The notes under the pieces were generated by a model, which worked only from the letters and a program-made list of their open reading frames with translations, had not been told where the DNA came from and did no database searches. This document shows, in pieces, positions 25,497 through 32,574 of a stretch of 44,426 bases of DNA. The translations under genes and the position numbers were made by a program. The first letter of the stretch is position 1. The number at the start of each line of letters is the position of its first letter. The stretch is from a virus. The DNA lies in the IMG/VR virus record IMGVR_UViG_3300031251_000045, positions 1 through 44,426 of that record, one strand, 5' to 3'.

Positions 25497-26852
25497 CTAC
25501 ATTTGCGCGAGCGCGTAAAGATTGTATTTTTCCTCGGTGTGCATCAAAAAAGCTCCGGACAACGCATCCACTATGTCGTCATGAGACGCTTCCGGAAAGT
25601 TTTCCAACTCCCTAAAAAAATCTTCGTTCCAGTTTCCTCTTAAAACACGGATGTTTCCTGCTTCAGCTTGAGCAGATACCGGAGAGGCTCTAGTGATCTT
25701 GTCTTTTGTGACTTTGTAGGGAGTTGCGTTGTATCCTGCAAGCATCCTAATCAAGAGATCAACTTCGCTAACTCCGGCTTGTCCGGGATCTTGCTCTATG
25801 CCAACCCGACAATTGTTTCCATCCTGTGAAGAAGTATTTTTAATCGCATTCTGCACATGTAAAGGACTTTCTTGCAATCTAACAACATCACAAACGTAAA
25901 ATATTCCGTTTAAATCCTTAGCGAGTTTGACTCCGACTGTGTAGTCCGGATCGTTGTTTTCTGTCTTCTTTGTCGCGGCGCGATCCCAGTAACGAACGAA
26001 AGTGCAGTTACGAGGGAGAACGTCAACAACTTCAAAGTATCCGCGCTGAAAAAACATTCCGGCGGAGGGACGAACATTCCAGTTTCCCATCAAAAGCTGT
26101 TCTCTTTCGAATCTAGACAACGCCTTCAATGAAGATAAATATCCGGGATCTCGTTCCAACAAAATTTTATTATCGTACACCGTAGAAGCGACAAAACTGA
26201 AGCTTTTTGGCAAACGAGTTGAATCGACAGACAGCAACTCTTCTTTAGAGTCAGCCCATATCACTTTCTCATTTTCAACCACAAACCAGCGAATAACGCC
26301 TGATCGTTCGGGAATTGCATACCCAGTTTGATCGTCAATCCACCATGAAATCATATGGCGCACCCACGAGTCCGGATCAGGGTTTGTTGTTGCACGGATA
26401 TAGCTAGGAATTCCAGAAACTGAGCGATTACGGCTAAACATGTACATGAATTGTGACCACGTAAAATGCGTTAGCTCATCGAATCCTATCAATGGAATCT
26501 GAGAGCCTTGCCAGTTGAAGCGGTCTTTATCATATTCCATGTTAGCGAAAGCGATTTTAGCTCCTGAAGGGAATGACCATTCCAAGCGAGATTCACGAGG
26601 GTAGCCACCGCAAAGGGGATAAATTGTGGTTGAAGTGTCCCACAACCCACCAGCATTACGAATTTGCGTTGATGTTCGACGGAAAATGACAGCTGAAAAG
26701 TTTTTCTTGCTTATCCAGCGAAGGCATTCCAAGAGAAGAGCAAAAGTTTTTCCGCCTCCGGCAGCTCCACCGTAGATCACGATGTTGGCGTTGTTCTGTA
26801 GGAATTGTTCTTGTGGGCCTTCCTGTGGCCTTAGCTCAAGTTCATTTTGCAT
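25497..26852 (-). CDS. terL: Terminase large subunit
   Basis: 451 residues. The ATPase domain has Walker A GGAAGGGKT (28-36) and Walker B LIGFDE (121-126). The nuclease domain (about 280-440) shows YWDRAATKKTENNDPDYTVG, then RVGIEQDPGQAGVSEVDLLI, and the final DDIVDALSGAFLMH with acidic metal ligands. It pumps DNA into the prohead and cuts it. Circular permutation of the contig suits headful packaging, but the sequence alone does not prove it. GAGGG precedes the ATG; overlaps terS by 11 nt. Confidence 0.95.
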   Translation of the reverse strand: MQNELELRPQEGPQEQFLQNNANIVIYGGAAGGGKTFALLLECLRWISKKNFSAVIFRRTSTQIRNAGGLWDTSTTIYPLCGGYPRESRLEWSFPSGAKIAFANMEYDKDRFNWQGSQIPLIGFDELTHFTWSQFMYMFSRNRSVSGIPSYIRATTNPDPDSWVRHMISWWIDDQTGYAIPERSGVIRWFVVENEKVIWADSKEELLSVDSTRLPKSFSFVASTVYDNKILLERDPGYLSSLKALSRFEREQLLMGNWNVRPSAGMFFQRGYFEVVDVLPRNCTFVRYWDRAATKKTENNDPDYTVGVKLAKDLNGIFYVCDVVRLQESPLHVQNAIKNTSSQDGNNCRVGIEQDPGQAGVSEVDLLIRMLAGYNATPYKVTKDKITRASPVSAQAEAGNIRVLRGNWNEDFFRELENFPEASHDDIVDALSGAFLMHTEEKYNLYALAQM

Positions 26853-27372
26853 TCTTACCCTCTATACATCTCATGCCATTGTCGGGTAGGTAGATAGAAA
26901 CGCCTTGAGGCTTAAAGTCTACGTTTTGCTCTACGACATGGGTTTCTTTCCAGCCAAGTCTTGTCTTGGCTAAAAATATCAATGCTCCGAGATTGGGTCT
27001 AACGCCTTGGTCTATGATTTCTTTTGTTTCTGGATCGTAGATTGGATCACGCCCTACAGCCATCTGGTAAAGTCTTTGAGCGATTTTATTCTTCGCTGTA
27101 GCTCTTCCAGAAATAAGCTCTTCGGGGTAGTATTTTGTGATTGTTTTGTTGTCTAAACCTAGAGCTGCTGCTATGTCCTCGTTTGTGGCTCCATAGGCAG
27201 CGTAGGAGTAGACTATCTTAGCATCCGAGTCCGTTGGGGTGTACTCGTTGTAGCGTTTCTTTTTAGGCTTCTCAAAGTTATTCCTGCGGATTACTTCCCT
27301 CGGGTCGCCCAATTCGCTTGAACTCTCGTTCTTTTTTGACTTTCCTGATTCTTTTGACTTCTTCATTGACAT
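26842..27372 (-). CDS. terS: Terminase small subunit
   Basis: 176 residues from the ATG at 27372 (GGAA 8 nt ahead; GTG at 27378 and ATG at 27366 are alternatives). A basic unstructured N-terminus precedes a helix-turn-helix around residues 50-95 (SDAKIVYSYAAYGATNEDIA, ALGLDNKTITKYY) and the oligomerisation helix with NKIAQRLYQMAVG and ALIFLAKTRLGWKE, a classic small-terminase ending. It recognises phage DNA and hands it to TerL. Its start overlaps the oxygenase gene by 95 nt. Confidence 0.8.
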   Translation of the reverse strand: MSMKKSKESGKSKKNESSSELGDPREVIRRNNFEKPKKKRYNEYTPTDSDAKIVYSYAAYGATNEDIAAALGLDNKTITKYYPEELISGRATAKNKIAQRLYQMAVGRDPIYDPETKEIIDQGVRPNLGALIFLAKTRLGWKETHVVEQNVDFKPQGVSIYLPDNGMRCIEGKNAK

Positions 27373-28117
27373 TGTCACAATTCCACATTTGTTCTAGGGA
27401 ATAGTACACGACAGAGTAACGGTAGCAGGAATCGCTGTTTCCCGGTGGTTTAATGATTGGCGTTACCCCATGAAGAATTTGCTGTCCGTCGAAGATGACA
27501 ACGTGATTGTCATCACATTCAAATTTGACATCGTACTCAGGACATGCAAGCCTTCCACCTGCTACTCCTCTTTTTAGCACGATCATATTACTAAGTACAT
27601 TTTTAAAATTACCTGCGTCGTGGTGGTATTTTAAAGGATTATTTTTATTCACGATGCCTGATGTGAAAGGAGTTTCTTTTATTGTCCATTCAGAAAGCAC
27701 CTTAGATTTCACAGCTTCGTAGTGCTGCTCTAGCGTATCTGGGAAGTGTTGCAGATATAGTTTAGTCAGCTCCTTTGCAAATTCGCAGATCACAAAGTGT
27801 TGTTCTGGGAAATTTCTAGCCATAGCAGTTGCTGAGCAAAAATCCTTTCTCATGGTAACACGAGGACTAAAACCGAAAATAGCACTTCTGGTTTTCAGGC
27901 CATTTGTCCTAAGTGTTTCTGCGTATTCTATCGTCTGAACTGCCCATCTCAAATGACTTGTGGGGGAATTTACCTTCATGTACAGAATTTTAGGCTTTCC
28001 ATTTTCTGTTATCATACAGTCGTAGTTTACGAGTGTAGAGCAATCCGCTTCAAGAGCGGATCGCATCTTAAATTGCTTGAAATCGACTTTCTTAGGAGTT
28101 ATTTCTAAGATTTGCAT
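27278..28117 (-). CDS. TET/JBP-like Fe(II)/2-oxoglutarate dioxygenase (DNA pyrimidine hydroxylase)
   Basis: 279 residues from the ATG at 28117 (CAGG 8 nt ahead; an earlier in-frame ATG at 28138 is possible). The C-terminal double-stranded beta-helix holds the full catalytic set: H165 and D167 in YHHDAGNF, H216 in QQILHGVTPI, and R233 in YRYSVVYYSL for 2-oxoglutarate. The surrounding GGRLACPEYDVKF and VVIFDGQQ strands match the TET/JBP family rather than AlkB or prolyl hydroxylases. Family enzymes oxidise the methyl of 5-methylcytosine (TET) or thymine (JBP) in DNA. The neighbouring glycosyltransferase supports hypermodification of the phage genome. Substrate base is not decided by sequence. 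Confidence 0.8.
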   Translation of the reverse strand: MQILEITPKKVDFKQFKMRSALEADCSTLVNYDCMITENGKPKILYMKVNSPTSHLRWAVQTIEYAETLRTNGLKTRSAIFGFSPRVTMRKDFCSATAMARNFPEQHFVICEFAKELTKLYLQHFPDTLEQHYEAVKSKVLSEWTIKETPFTSGIVNKNNPLKYHHDAGNFKNVLSNMIVLKRGVAGGRLACPEYDVKFECDDNHVVIFDGQQILHGVTPIIKPPGNSDSCYRYSVVYYSLEQMWNCDNVNEEVKRIRKVKKEREFKRIGRPEGSNPQE

Positions 28118-28410
28118 GGACAACCTGGGCGCGCACATTCTTCATCTTCTTCATCGTCTTCTTCGCATTCTTCATCCAGCTGTTCTTGTGCTCGAATTTC
28201 GCATTCGATGATTTCAAAACTGCTTGAACATTGCTCTCCAACCCACAAATTCAATCCGGAACGAGCATTTCTTAGCATTTGGATTTCTGCGTCGAAACAT
28301 TTATCTTTCAGCATCGTGATCACAGTATTAATCATGGAAACTTGCTCCATGATCAAAGTCAGTTTTGGTGCACTTTTCTTCAAGATTTCAAGGGATTCTT
28401 TTCCGCTCAT
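28105..28410 (-). CDS. Small helical protein with acidic stretch and Cys-rich end, inside the modification cluster
   Basis: 101 residues. Residues 5-75 are helical. Residues 78-93 are almost entirely Glu/Asp/Cys (LDEECEEDDEEDEEC), and the protein ends ARPGCPCKS, giving four Cys near an acidic patch that could hold a metal. It starts at an ATGA overlap with the glycosyltransferase gene (GGAG at 9 nt) and overlaps the oxygenase gene by 13 nt. No family known; the position suggests an accessory of the oxygenase-glycosyltransferase pair. Confidence 0.7.
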   Translation of the reverse strand: MSGKESLEILKKSAPKLTLIMEQVSMINTVITMLKDKCFDAEIQMLRNARSGLNLWVGEQCSSSFEIIECEIRAQEQLDEECEEDDEEDEECARPGCPCKS

Positions 28411-29138
28411 TTTATTTTACTCCAGTTAATTTTTACGTCTATTCTTCCATCTTTTCTCAAGGGTTCTACGAGTCCCGGCCACTTTCTGCACAGCTTCCAA
28501 GTTTCGTGCATCTCAGTTTCTTCATTGTACCATTGAGACATACCACCTACTTGGCTTTTCATGTCTGCTATTCCATAGTAGTATTTGCCCGACCTAAGTG
28601 TCCCTTTATCTTTGAATATGGCTTGGAAACTTATGTCGTAATCCTCTCGTATTTTAAACCTAAGATCATAGTCGATATTCTGGCAATGTTGCAAATCAAA
28701 CATTACACACTGCATAGCAATTTTATTCTTCTGAACTTCCGGAGACGACCAAGCAAATTGCCGAAGTTCAAGAGATAGCATACTTGAGGGTCCATATGGT
28801 AGAAGTTGGTGAACGGCTTTACCCAAGACACTTGCATCGGACTGGATCGTTTTCCCACCTTCCACATAACCGAAGCATTCAATGTCATCGTCAAGCATCC
28901 AGAATTTTTCATAGTTCATTTTTCGCATTTGCTTGAGAATCCAGTGTCTAGCAAATGTTATACCTTGATCGTTCGAAGGTAGCACCATGAGAGGTTTACC
29001 AGATTCGGCATACCGTTTTTCATCTTGAGGTTCGACGACAAAGCAGAAATGTAAACCTGCTTTACTCAGCAATTTGTCTGTCTTCGTCTTCCCGGCTCTC
29101 CCCTTCGATGGGATCATAATCGGCAACATCGAGTCCAT
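28407..29138 (-). CDS. TET-associated-type glycosyltransferase (TAGT-like)
   Basis: 243 residues from the ATG at 29138, with GAGG at 5 nt. The opening PIMIPSKGRAGKTKTDKLLS is the nucleotide-sugar binding start of the TAGT group of GT-A-like enzymes. The FWMLDDDIE motif (DDD at 83-85) is the metal-binding site, and the KIREDYDISFQ motif (ED at 165-166) is the usual catalytic acidic pair. Known partners of TET/JBP oxygenases in phage add a sugar to the hydroxymethyl base. Separated from the oxygenase by one small gene. Donor sugar unknown. Confidence 0.75.
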   Translation of the reverse strand: MDSMLPIMIPSKGRAGKTKTDKLLSKAGLHFCFVVEPQDEKRYAESGKPLMVLPSNDQGITFARHWILKQMRKMNYEKFWMLDDDIECFGYVEGGKTIQSDASVLGKAVHQLLPYGPSSMLSLELRQFAWSSPEVQKNKIAMQCVMFDLQHCQNIDYDLRFKIREDYDISFQAIFKDKGTLRSGKYYYGIADMKSQVGGMSQWYNEETEMHETWKLCRKWPGLVEPLRKDGRIDVKINWSKIK

Positions 29139-29790
29139 TTCCAACCTCGTAAAAATTTAACAGTCTTAAAAGCACTTCGCTATTGTCATCGCAGTCAAGC
29201 TCTTTACTGATCTCGTCCATGTCCCTAATAACCTTTTCGTAGGTTTCTGTCGGGAAATGAAAGACAATCTGCTTTATAGTCTTTTCGTTAAAGTCTTTTT
29301 TTGAACGTTCTAGCTCATCGGCCGGAATGTCTGGCTTTACAGCGTCATCTTCACCCATCAAAGCTGTTTGTTTTATGTTAGGATCAGCCTCGGGAGCGGT
29401 GTGTTCTAGCAGAGAGATTTCGGTTCCGTACCTATCCAGCTCTTCTTGTGTGTAAATCCGCTTTACAATCTCTTGATCCCAGCGACCAAAGTCTACGTTG
29501 TCCCTGATAATGAAACGGCGTTGCTGGTCATCATTAATGTCATCTGCCCAGATCACCCACACGTGATCGAATCCGGCTTCTTTACAGGCTCTGTAGCGTT
29601 GATTACCGCCTAAGATGATTCCATCCTTGTTTACAACGATTGGACGCAGCTTAAGCATCCAAGGGGCATCCATGACAGATCTTAAGAGTTTCTTAAACTT
29701 TTCTTCCGAAATTGTTCTGGGATTGCTAGGATTTCTAAAAACCTTGTCGATTGGAGTCTTTACGATTTTGTAGGCTGGCTTACCTTGCAT
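29062..29790 (-). CDS. ParB-like nuclease-fold protein, copy 2
   Basis: 242 residues. Residues 9-110 are a ParB N-terminal domain: NPSNPRTISEEKFKKLLRSV, RPIVVNKDGIILGGNQRYRA, then IIRDNVDFGRWDQE. The GGNQR motif replaces the ParB GERR/GHRR nucleotide loop, as in ParB-like proteins beside DNA methyl- or base-modifying enzymes. The C-terminal half is specific to this pair, with a conserved IKQIVFHFPTETYEKV strand-helix. GGAGGGAAA precedes the ATG. It is paralogous to the gene at 29780. Role in base modification or DNA binding is inferred. Confidence 0.8.
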   Translation of the reverse strand: MQGKPAYKIVKTPIDKVFRNPSNPRTISEEKFKKLLRSVMDAPWMLKLRPIVVNKDGIILGGNQRYRACKEAGFDHVWVIWADDINDDQQRRFIIRDNVDFGRWDQEIVKRIYTQEELDRYGTEISLLEHTAPEADPNIKQTALMGEDDAVKPDIPADELERSKKDFNEKTIKQIVFHFPTETYEKVIRDMDEISKELDCDDNSEVLLRLLNFYEVGNGLDVADYDPIEGESREDEDRQIAE

Positions 29791-30418
29791 TTTCCCTCCA
29801 ATAACGGATAAGTTTAACGAGCATGTCTGGATTTTCTTCCGTTGCTGAGTGATTCTTTACAGCACTGAGAGACTGTACGACTTTTTCGTACAGTTCAGCA
29901 GGGTAGTAAACGACGACTTGTTTGATAGAGTTGTTGTCGTAAATCTCTTTTTGCTTGGCTAAGTCTGCGGAGTCAACCTCTGGTTCAATGTCTCCGATTA
30001 CTTCAAGGCGAGGGCTAGAAACTTCCACGAGATCCACACCAAGCTCAACCAGCTCGCGATCAGAGTAATTTGCTGCCACCAGTTCGCGATCGAATTGGCC
30101 GAAATACGTATTGTCTTTGACCACGAATTCCTTGAGCTGTTCTTCACTTAAATCCTCCGCTCTTACGACGTGGACTTCCTTCAATCCGGCTTCTTGACAC
30201 GCTCTAAACCTTTGGTTCCCCCCTAAGACCACATTGTCTTTGTCTACGACAATGAAGCGGATTGAGAGCATGAAACCATCAGTCTTAATCGAGTGGACTA
30301 GCTTCTTGAATTCCGCATCCTGAATCACACGAGGGTTGTTCAGGTTGGCTCGGAGTTGATTGATCGGTAAGCAATGGATCGGGTAGGCTTCCTCCGTCCA
30401 CGTTTTTTTGGTCGCCAT
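29780..30418 (-). CDS. ParB-like nuclease-fold protein, copy 1
   Basis: 212 residues with the same layout as the next gene: NNPRVIQDAEFKKLVHSIKT, FIVVDKDNVVLGGNQRFRAC, FVVKDNTYFGQFDRELV, then a C-terminal IKQVVVYYPAELYEKV segment. No Walker ATPase or partition centromere-binding domain is seen, so a plasmid-partition role is unlikely. GGAG precedes the ATG by 7 nt. Tandem duplication with later divergence is the simplest origin of the two copies. Confidence 0.8.
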   Translation of the reverse strand: MATKKTWTEEAYPIHCLPINQLRANLNNPRVIQDAEFKKLVHSIKTDGFMLSIRFIVVDKDNVVLGGNQRFRACQEAGLKEVHVVRAEDLSEEQLKEFVVKDNTYFGQFDRELVAANYSDRELVELGVDLVEVSSPRLEVIGDIEPEVDSADLAKQKEIYDNNSIKQVVVYYPAELYEKVVQSLSAVKNHSATEENPDMLVKLIRYWRENAR

Positions 30419-31791: not shown

Positions 31792-32574
31792 ATGACAACA
31801 TTTTTAGATGAAGCAAAATTAAATAGATTGGTTCCTAGCATATTCGCTACACATGGCGGTGAAAAGGTTAGCAGCCGTTACGGATTTATACCTACGATTG
31901 AAGTTGTACGGGGATTGCGTACAGCTGGATTCCACCCCACAATGGCTATACAAAATTCTAGCAGGATTGCTGGGAGAGAAACTTACGTAAAGCACCTAAT
32001 GAGATTCCGACATGAATCCATGCTGGACTTCAAAGCTGGAGTAGTTCCTGAGATTGTACTGGTCAATAGCCACGATGGGACAACGAGCTATCAATTAAGA
32101 GCTGGGATTTATCGCCTTGTTTGCGCGAATGGAATGATCGCTGGCAACGAGATGCACTGCTTTAAGGTTAAGCATCAAGGGAATGTTATCGAAAAAGTTG
32201 TTGACGCTGCTAACCAAATCATCGAGATTGTACCGCTTTCGGTCAATAAGGTCGAAGAGTGGAAAGGAATAGAGTTAAGCGTGGCAGCGCAGCGAGCTTA
32301 CGCGGAGACTGCGATGTCGCTAAAATGGGAGCCTGAGCTGATGCCAGTTAAACCTAACCAAATCCTAACGCCAAGACGTACGGCTGACACTGGAAACGAT
32401 CTCTGGTCAACGTTCAACGTGATTCAAGAGAACATGATTCGCGGGGGGGTTAGGTATCAAACCGAGGCCGGATCTAGAATGAAGACTCGCGAGGTCGGAT
32501 CGGTTAGCGAGAATGTGCGGCTAAACACAGCGTTGTGGACACTGACCGAAAAAATGGCAGAATTGCTGAAATAA
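31792..32574 (+). CDS. DUF932 phage/plasmid-like protein
   Basis: 260 residues. DUF932 features: HGGEKVSSRYGFIPTIEVVR, then FHPTMAIQNSSRIAGRETYV, HLMRFRHESML, IVLVNSHDGTTSYQLRAGIY, RLVCANGMIAGNEMH and a late ALWTLTEKMAELL helix. DUF932 proteins are widespread on phages and plasmids, with no settled biochemical role; some are linked to DNA replication or host control. TAGGT precedes the ATG. Largest gene of this cassette. Confidence 0.85.
   Translation: MTTFLDEAKLNRLVPSIFATHGGEKVSSRYGFIPTIEVVRGLRTAGFHPTMAIQNSSRIAGRETYVKHLMRFRHESMLDFKAGVVPEIVLVNSHDGTTSYQLRAGIYRLVCANGMIAGNEMHCFKVKHQGNVIEKVVDAANQIIEIVPLSVNKVEEWKGIELSVAAQRAYAETAMSLKWEPELMPVKPNQILTPRRTADTGNDLWSTFNVIQENMIRGGVRYQTEAGSRMKTREVGSVSENVRLNTALWTLTEKMAELLK

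What the first reader, a model, noticed from the sequence alone, without database searches (positions are those of the whole stretch)
27278..30418. Putative phage DNA hypermodification cluster: TET/JBP-like oxygenase, TAGT-like glycosyltransferase, two ParB-like proteins
Sequence: the oxygenase has the HxD, H and R set (H165, D167, H216, R233) in a TET/JBP-like context, and the glycosyltransferase has the IPSKGRA, DDD and ED motifs of TET-associated glycosyltransferases. They are read in one operon with two ParB-like proteins and one acidic Cys-rich protein, immediately before terminase. Established: TET/JBP oxygenases hydroxylate the methyl group of pyrimidines in DNA, and TAGT enzymes cap them with sugar. 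Inference: the phage genome carries glycosylated hydroxymethyl-pyrimidine and is protected from restriction.
Basis: partly seen in the sequence, partly recalled or inferred. Interest (0 to 1): 0.88.

Follow-up and report, generated by a model that had tools for sequence, protein, structure and literature searches.

The report
Phage operon for sugar-coating its DNA
This virus of bacteria carries a compact gene set that very probably oxidises a base of its own DNA, most likely thymine, and caps it with a sugar to hide from bacterial restriction enzymes; the parts belong to known families, but the evidence points to thymine rather than methylated cytosine as the starting base, and to a ParB-like protein as a constant partner.

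Summary
Window 27278-30418 (- strand) encodes a TET/JBP oxygenase (Pfam E 7e-13, above cut-off; best PDB folds TET2, CMD1, NgTET1), a TAGT glycosyltransferase (E 3e-21) and two ParB-fold proteins, directly before terminase. The acidic Cys-rich ORF has no relative in any related locus and is not part of the core.

Comparison adds three things. (1) No cytosine-C5 methyltransferase exists in the window, in 53 related IMG/VR records, or in 12 of 13 isolate genomes with TET homologues; the exception (Melnitz-3) has it beside a TET from a distant branch. (2) Close TET relatives (49-59% identical) sit instead with amino acid:DNA transferase and P-loop kinase genes of thymidine hypermodification. So thymine is the likely substrate and glycosyl-5-hydroxymethyluracil, a base-J-like nucleotide, the likely product. 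(3) ParB lies upstream of TET in 60 of 60 loci with enough flank, while the neighbouring second-step gene is swapped (TAGT, other putative glycosyltransferases, FkbM, ADDT/kinase).

All families were described before, so this is a new member of a known kind. Product, sugar, sites and protection are inferred, not shown.

The parts
29780..30418 (-). ParB-like protein 1 (212 aa), first gene of the modification operon; ParB-CTPase fold domain with GxxR P-motif
   Evidence: Pfam ParB_N E 5.6e-9; GxxR invariant in 20 aligned relatives
29062..29790 (-). ParB-like protein 2 (242 aa)
   Evidence: Pfam ParB_N E 2.4e-7; model matches ParB-CTP structures 7bnr and 6sdk, Foldseek E 4e-6 to 2e-5
28407..29138 (-). 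TAGT glycosyltransferase (start probably the ATG at 29138; the ORF list gives TTG at 29144)
   Evidence: Pfam TAGT PF20691 E 3.4e-21; PHROG 842 beta-glucosyl-HMC-alpha-glucosyltransferase E 2e-29; DDD and ED motifs conserved; sequence
28105..28410 (-). small acidic Cys-rich ORF (101 aa) lying between TAGT and TET; not conserved, probably not a core part
   Evidence: no Pfam match; no homologue in relatives
27278..28117 (-). TET/JBP 2-oxoglutarate/Fe(II) DNA base oxygenase (279 aa from the ATG at 28117)
   Evidence: Pfam Tet_JBP E 7.3e-13; H165, D167, H216, R233 invariant; AlphaFold pLDDT 88; TET2 Z 19.6, NgTET1 Z 18.2
26842..27378 (-). terminase small subunit (ORF overlaps the TET end; the true start is probably further in)
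   Evidence: PHROG 309 E 1.6e-11
25497..26852 (-). terminase large subunit; boundary of the operon
   Evidence: Pfam Terminase_6N E 4.5e-27, PHROG 979 E 7e-169

Best explanation
The operon is a phage DNA hypermodification cassette acting after replication, probably just before packaging. The TET/JBP enzyme hydroxylates the methyl group of thymine in phage DNA, using Fe(II), O2 and 2-oxoglutarate, to give 5-hydroxymethyluracil. TAGT then transfers a sugar from a host nucleotide-sugar to that hydroxyl, giving a base-J-like glycosyl-hydroxymethyluracil that blocks host restriction enzymes. The ParB-fold proteins probably act as a nucleotide-dependent loading or targeting factor that brings the enzymes to DNA. 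Shown: gene families, fold, conserved gene order, lack of a C5 methyltransferase. Inferred: thymine as the base, the sugar, the ParB role, the timing and the protective function.
For: Family and fold: Tet_JBP and TAGT above curated cut-offs; catalytic residues invariant; fold closest to TET2, CMD1, NgTET1. Base: no C5 methyltransferase in the window or 53 related records or in 12 of 13 isolate genomes, while the same search finds it in Melnitz-3 beside a TET of the other major branch. TETs on the window's side of a 100/99 branch include those paired with amino acid:DNA transferase PF18724 and P-loop kinase, families tied to thymidine hypermodification (PMC11955845). No thymidylate synthase homologue that could make hydroxymethyl-dUMP in the window, in 15 other IMG/VR records or in 9 of 10 isolate genomes searched. 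ParB upstream of TET in 60 of 60 loci with enough flank. ParB fold matches ParB-CTP structures.
Against: The window is a linear contig without terminal repeats, so a missing gene could lie outside it; most relatives are fragments too. A host methyltransferase could supply 5mC. The only TAGT activity known to the papers read is addition of a second sugar to glucosyl-hmC (PMC13216743), so the acceptor here is uncertain. The TET relatives with ADDT or kinase partners show the pathway by company, not by assay. Only window-side TETs were widely sampled. No sequence signature of the modification was found.
Confidence: 0.72

Rival explanations
1. The same cassette acts on cytosine: a host (or unsequenced phage) C5 methyltransferase makes 5mC, TET oxidises it to 5hmC and TAGT glycosylates it, as in the methyltransferase-TET-glycosyltransferase systems reported for phages (Burke et al. 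2021).
For: Phage TET with cytosine activity is published (cited in PMC12730594 and PMC11404850); TAGT of T6 acts on modified cytosine; a C5 methyltransferase-TET pair exists in Melnitz-3.
Against: No C5 methyltransferase in the window, 53 relatives or 12 of 13 isolate genomes; the window's TET branch includes members in thymidine-hypermodification clusters.
Confidence: 0.15
2. TET makes hydroxymethyluracil but TAGT acts elsewhere (a sugar on a sugar, or a host surface glycan or virion protein), so the DNA carries only hydroxymethyluracil or a differently capped base.
For: TAGT of T6 adds a sugar to a sugar; the second-step gene is replaceable.
Against: TAGT or another putative second-step gene sits between ParB and TET in most relatives, which fits a role on the TET product; the window has no other glycosyltransferase among the proteins scanned.
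Confidence: 0.08
3. The ParB-like proteins have nothing to do with base modification and serve partition, packaging or regulation next to terminase (a rival on the ParB role only, compatible with the rest).
For: The cassette is next to terminase in many relatives; partition is the classic ParB role.
Against: ParB stays with TET even where TET is far from terminase (Altadena, HTVC112P) and upstream of TET in 60 of 60 loci; the canonical partition model TIGR00180 is far below its cut-off (24.7 and 28.5 against 58.45 bits). ParB-fold domains are also fused to DNA methyltransferases in phages and occur beside CmoX (PMC12704722, PMC12783734).
Confidence: 0.25

Closest known systems
Predicted ParB-TET-ADDT/kinase thymidine hypermodification clusters of actinophages (Rhodococcus phage Tonitrus, Mycobacterium phages Prince and Serendipitous)
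   Same: ParB immediately or closely upstream of a TET/JBP protein of the same branch, cluster before terminase, no C5 methyltransferase
   Different: Tonitrus and Prince use an amino acid:DNA transferase-type gene and a P-loop kinase as further steps; the window has TAGT and no kinase of that family. Serendipitous has both TAGT and kinase.
Phage C5 methyltransferase-TET-glycosyltransferase cytosine hypermodification (Burke et al. 2021, known here only through citing papers and memory)
   Same: TET plus glycosyltransferase
   Different: No C5 methyltransferase; TET on the other side of a 100/99 branch from the methyltransferase-linked Melnitz-3 TET.
Kinetoplastid base J pathway (JBP thymine hydroxylase plus glucosyltransferase)
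   Same: Predicted chemistry: thymine to hydroxymethyluracil to glycosyl-hydroxymethyluracil
   Different: Only the TET/JBP superfamily is shared as far as tested; other context, and the sugar is unknown.
T6 TAGT (beta-glucosyl-HMC alpha-glucosyltransferase)
   Same: Same glycosyltransferase family PF20691 and PHROG 842
   Different: T6 TAGT adds a second sugar to glucosyl-hmC made by other enzymes; here TAGT is solitary with a TET.

Membership tests
TET/JBP dioxygenase (PF12851) | Match above Pfam gathering score | tested here: met
   48.5 bits against 34.9
TET/JBP dioxygenase (PF12851) | Fe(II) HxD...H and 2-oxoglutarate Arg | tested here: met
   H165, D167, H216, R233 invariant in 30 sequences
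TET/JBP dioxygenase (PF12851) | TET-type double-stranded beta-helix fold | tested here: met
   TET2 Z 19.6, CMD1 18.3, NgTET1 18.2, above FTO/AlkB at about 15 or less
TET/JBP dioxygenase (PF12851) | Oxidation of the 5-methyl group of a base in DNA | not testable with these tools
   needs enzyme assay
TAGT glycosyltransferase (PF20691) | Match above gathering score and conserved acidic (DDD) and ED motifs | tested here: met
   76.6 bits against 27.5; D85-D87 and D168 invariant, E167 nearly so
TAGT glycosyltransferase (PF20691) | Sugar transfer to a modified DNA base | not testable with these tools
   needs assay and LC-MS
C5-methyltransferase-TET cytosine hypermodification system | C5 cytosine methyltransferase encoded with the TET | tested here: not met
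   0 in the window and 53 related records; positive control Melnitz-3. The contig may be incomplete.
Thymidine hypermodification with ADDT and kinase | Amino acid:DNA transferase and/or P-loop kinase in the cluster | tested here: not met
   No PF18751 match in the window and no ADDT-model match near the window's TET; present in relatives. So the window's cassette is the glycosyl version.
ParB-CTPase fold | ParB_N match, GxxR P-motif, ParB fold | tested here: met
Canonical partition ParB | TIGR00180 score above cut-off | tested here: not met
   24.7 and 28.5 bits against 58.45
Base J-like product | Glycosylated hydroxymethyluracil in DNA | not testable with these tools
   needs nucleoside mass spectrometry

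The most novel reading that the evidence does not exclude
A widespread, methyltransferase-free phage cassette makes a base-J-like glycosyl-hydroxymethyluracil directly from thymine in DNA, with a dedicated ParB-fold NTP switch loading a fixed TET oxygenase and interchangeable second-step enzymes (sugar, amino acid, O-methyl).
Probability: 0.45. Interest if true: 0.65.

Novelty: new member of a known kind. Interest (0 to 1): 0.42.

Why it matters
If the thymine reading is right, base J chemistry, known from kinetoplastid eukaryotes, has a common phage counterpart, which bears on where TET/JBP enzymes came from. It also answers in part what the many solitary TAGT genes in phages do (288 of 753 genomes lack the T4-type glucosyltransferases, PMC13216743), and marks a ParB-fold protein as a constant partner of TET that can be assayed. 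The modular second step offers a source of new DNA-tagging enzymes.

Tried and rejected
phmmer against PDB sequences gave nothing useful for either enzyme. Dinucleotide ratios gave no modification signature: GpC 1.04, CpG 0.95, TpA 0.65; low TpA is common in genomes and was not compared with controls here. Prolyl hydroxylase reading rejected: none among the Pfam matches or the 50 best folds shown, which are mainly TET, FTO and AlkB types. 'Queuine tRNA-ribosyltransferase', the label of the best PHROG match and of RefSeq phage entries, rejected as a propagated misannotation because the proteins match Tet_JBP. No PADLOC defence role: only the ParB domains hit a methyltransferase model's N-terminal part. 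Genome-contig scan found four relatives in bacterial assemblies (three MAGs and one Brevibacterium isolate) and no clear host for the window's phage. Papers by Iyer 2013, Burke 2021, Lee 2018 and Lee 2021 were not held.

Full report
Observation. The stretch 27278-30418 on the - strand reads ParB-like, ParB-like, TAGT, small acidic ORF, TET/JBP, then terminase small and large subunits. Pfam confirms Tet_JBP (E 7.3e-13), TAGT (E 3.4e-21) and two ParB_N domains, all above curated cut-offs.

Fold. AlphaFold of the oxygenase from 30 aligned relatives has mean pLDDT 88. The best solved folds are TET2 (Z 19.6), CMD1 (18.3) and NgTET1 (18.2), with FTO and AlkB types at about 15 or less. The second ParB protein is a ParB-CTPase fold (Foldseek E 4e-6 to ParB bound to a CTP analogue; mean pLDDT 73.5, with residues 11-120 mostly 79-97 and the rest weaker) and keeps the GxxR phosphate motif in all 20 aligned relatives. 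In PMC12704722 this arginine was needed for nucleotide binding by ParB-fold proteins.

Relatives. A profile scan of IMG/VR found 527 stretches that encode relatives; the 80 best were kept. Together with an earlier scan, 87 distinct loci (the window included) were classed. ParB lies upstream in 60 of the 60 with at least 2.3 kb of upstream sequence. Partner genes: TAGT 47, other putative glycosyltransferases 26, ADDT and/or P-loop kinase 9, FkbM 2, none found 3 (two of these begin at a contig end). The 'other glycosyltransferase' label is an inference: one group has a sub-threshold Glyco_trans_1_2 match, one group is bridged to TAGT by a member just above the TAGT cut-off (L040), and two groups have no Pfam match. 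On a tree of 42 TETs, all under 92% identical to each other, the partner label needs 14 changes where 3 would be the least possible, so the second step has been exchanged repeatedly around a stable ParB-TET pair.

Which base. TET-type enzymes need a 5-methyl group: 5mC, which requires a methyltransferase, or thymine, which does not. PF00145 gives no match above cut-off in the window and 53 related records (one sub-threshold 15-bit hit), nor in 12 of 13 isolate phage genomes with TET homologues. The 13th, Melnitz-3, has a C5 methyltransferase directly before its TET, which shows that the search can find one. In a tree of 24 TETs, Melnitz-3 lies across a 100/99 branch from the window (long branches call for caution). 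The window's side holds all sampled TETs with amino acid:DNA transferase or kinase partners, for example L095 and L111 (relatives with such partners are 49-59% identical to the window protein), Tonitrus and Prince. Tonitrus's authors call its cluster a thymidine hypermodification system (PMC11955845), and Prince's annotators call its TET a thymidine hydroxylase. None of the window, 15 other IMG/VR records or 9 of 10 isolate genomes has a thymidylate synthase homologue that could supply hydroxymethyl-dUMP before replication (only Cr30 does). Thymine in DNA is therefore the likely substrate.

Second step. TAGT of phage T6 adds a second glucose to glucosylated hydroxymethylcytosine, and many phages carry TAGT without the T4-type glucosyltransferases, which PMC13216743 takes as a sign of novel transferases. 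In the window TAGT is the only glycosyltransferase among the proteins scanned, so direct glycosylation of hydroxymethyluracil is the simplest reading. In Arthrobacter phage Altadena, TAGT is followed by a PIG-L GlcNAc deacetylase, a hint that HexNAc may be the sugar there; the window's sugar is unknown.

Parts that drop out. The acidic Cys-rich ORF has no homologue in relatives.

Novelty. Every family and the general idea of TET plus TAGT in phages are known (Iyer et al. 2013 and Burke et al. 2021, from memory and citing papers). What this comparison adds is the thymine assignment for this branch, the constant ParB partner, and the swappable second step. The window's operon itself is a new member of a known kind.

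Limits. Nothing here shows chemistry. The contig is linear, without terminal repeats, and most relatives are fragments, so absences are only as good as the sampling; the isolate genomes, deposited as complete, carry most of that argument.

Noticed in passing
L034 (NC_051587.1 and many mycobacteriophages, gene 2); PHROG 6059: TET/JBP proteins are labelled 'queuine tRNA-ribosyltransferase' in RefSeq phage records and in PHROGs; another branch (Cr30, DLP_6, S-CBWM1) is labelled 'SNF2 DNA repair protein'. Both look like propagated misannotations.
   Followed up: partly
L127:1852-2826 (Mycobacterium phage Prince gene 3): Annotated as DNA glycosylase, but matches amino acid:DNA transferase ADDT PF18724, E 1.4e-8.
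   Followed up: yes
L032:5729-7077 (Arthrobacter phage Altadena): TET, TAGT and a PIG-L GlcNAc deacetylase in a row: suggests a HexNAc, later deacetylated, on the modified base.
   Followed up: no
L058:5314-5994, L112:6899-7597, L128:4213-4914: FkbM-type methyltransferases beside TET in place of a glycosyltransferase: possible O-methylation of the hydroxymethyl base.
   Followed up: partly
L052, L072, L096 (slot between ParB and TET): A protein of about 300 aa, without any Pfam match where tested (L052), occupies the second-step slot; possibly an undescribed DNA-modifying transferase.
   Followed up: no
window 31792-32574 (+): DUF932 / phage-plasmid-like protein on the opposite strand just upstream of the operon, kept in that place in close relatives.
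   Followed up: no
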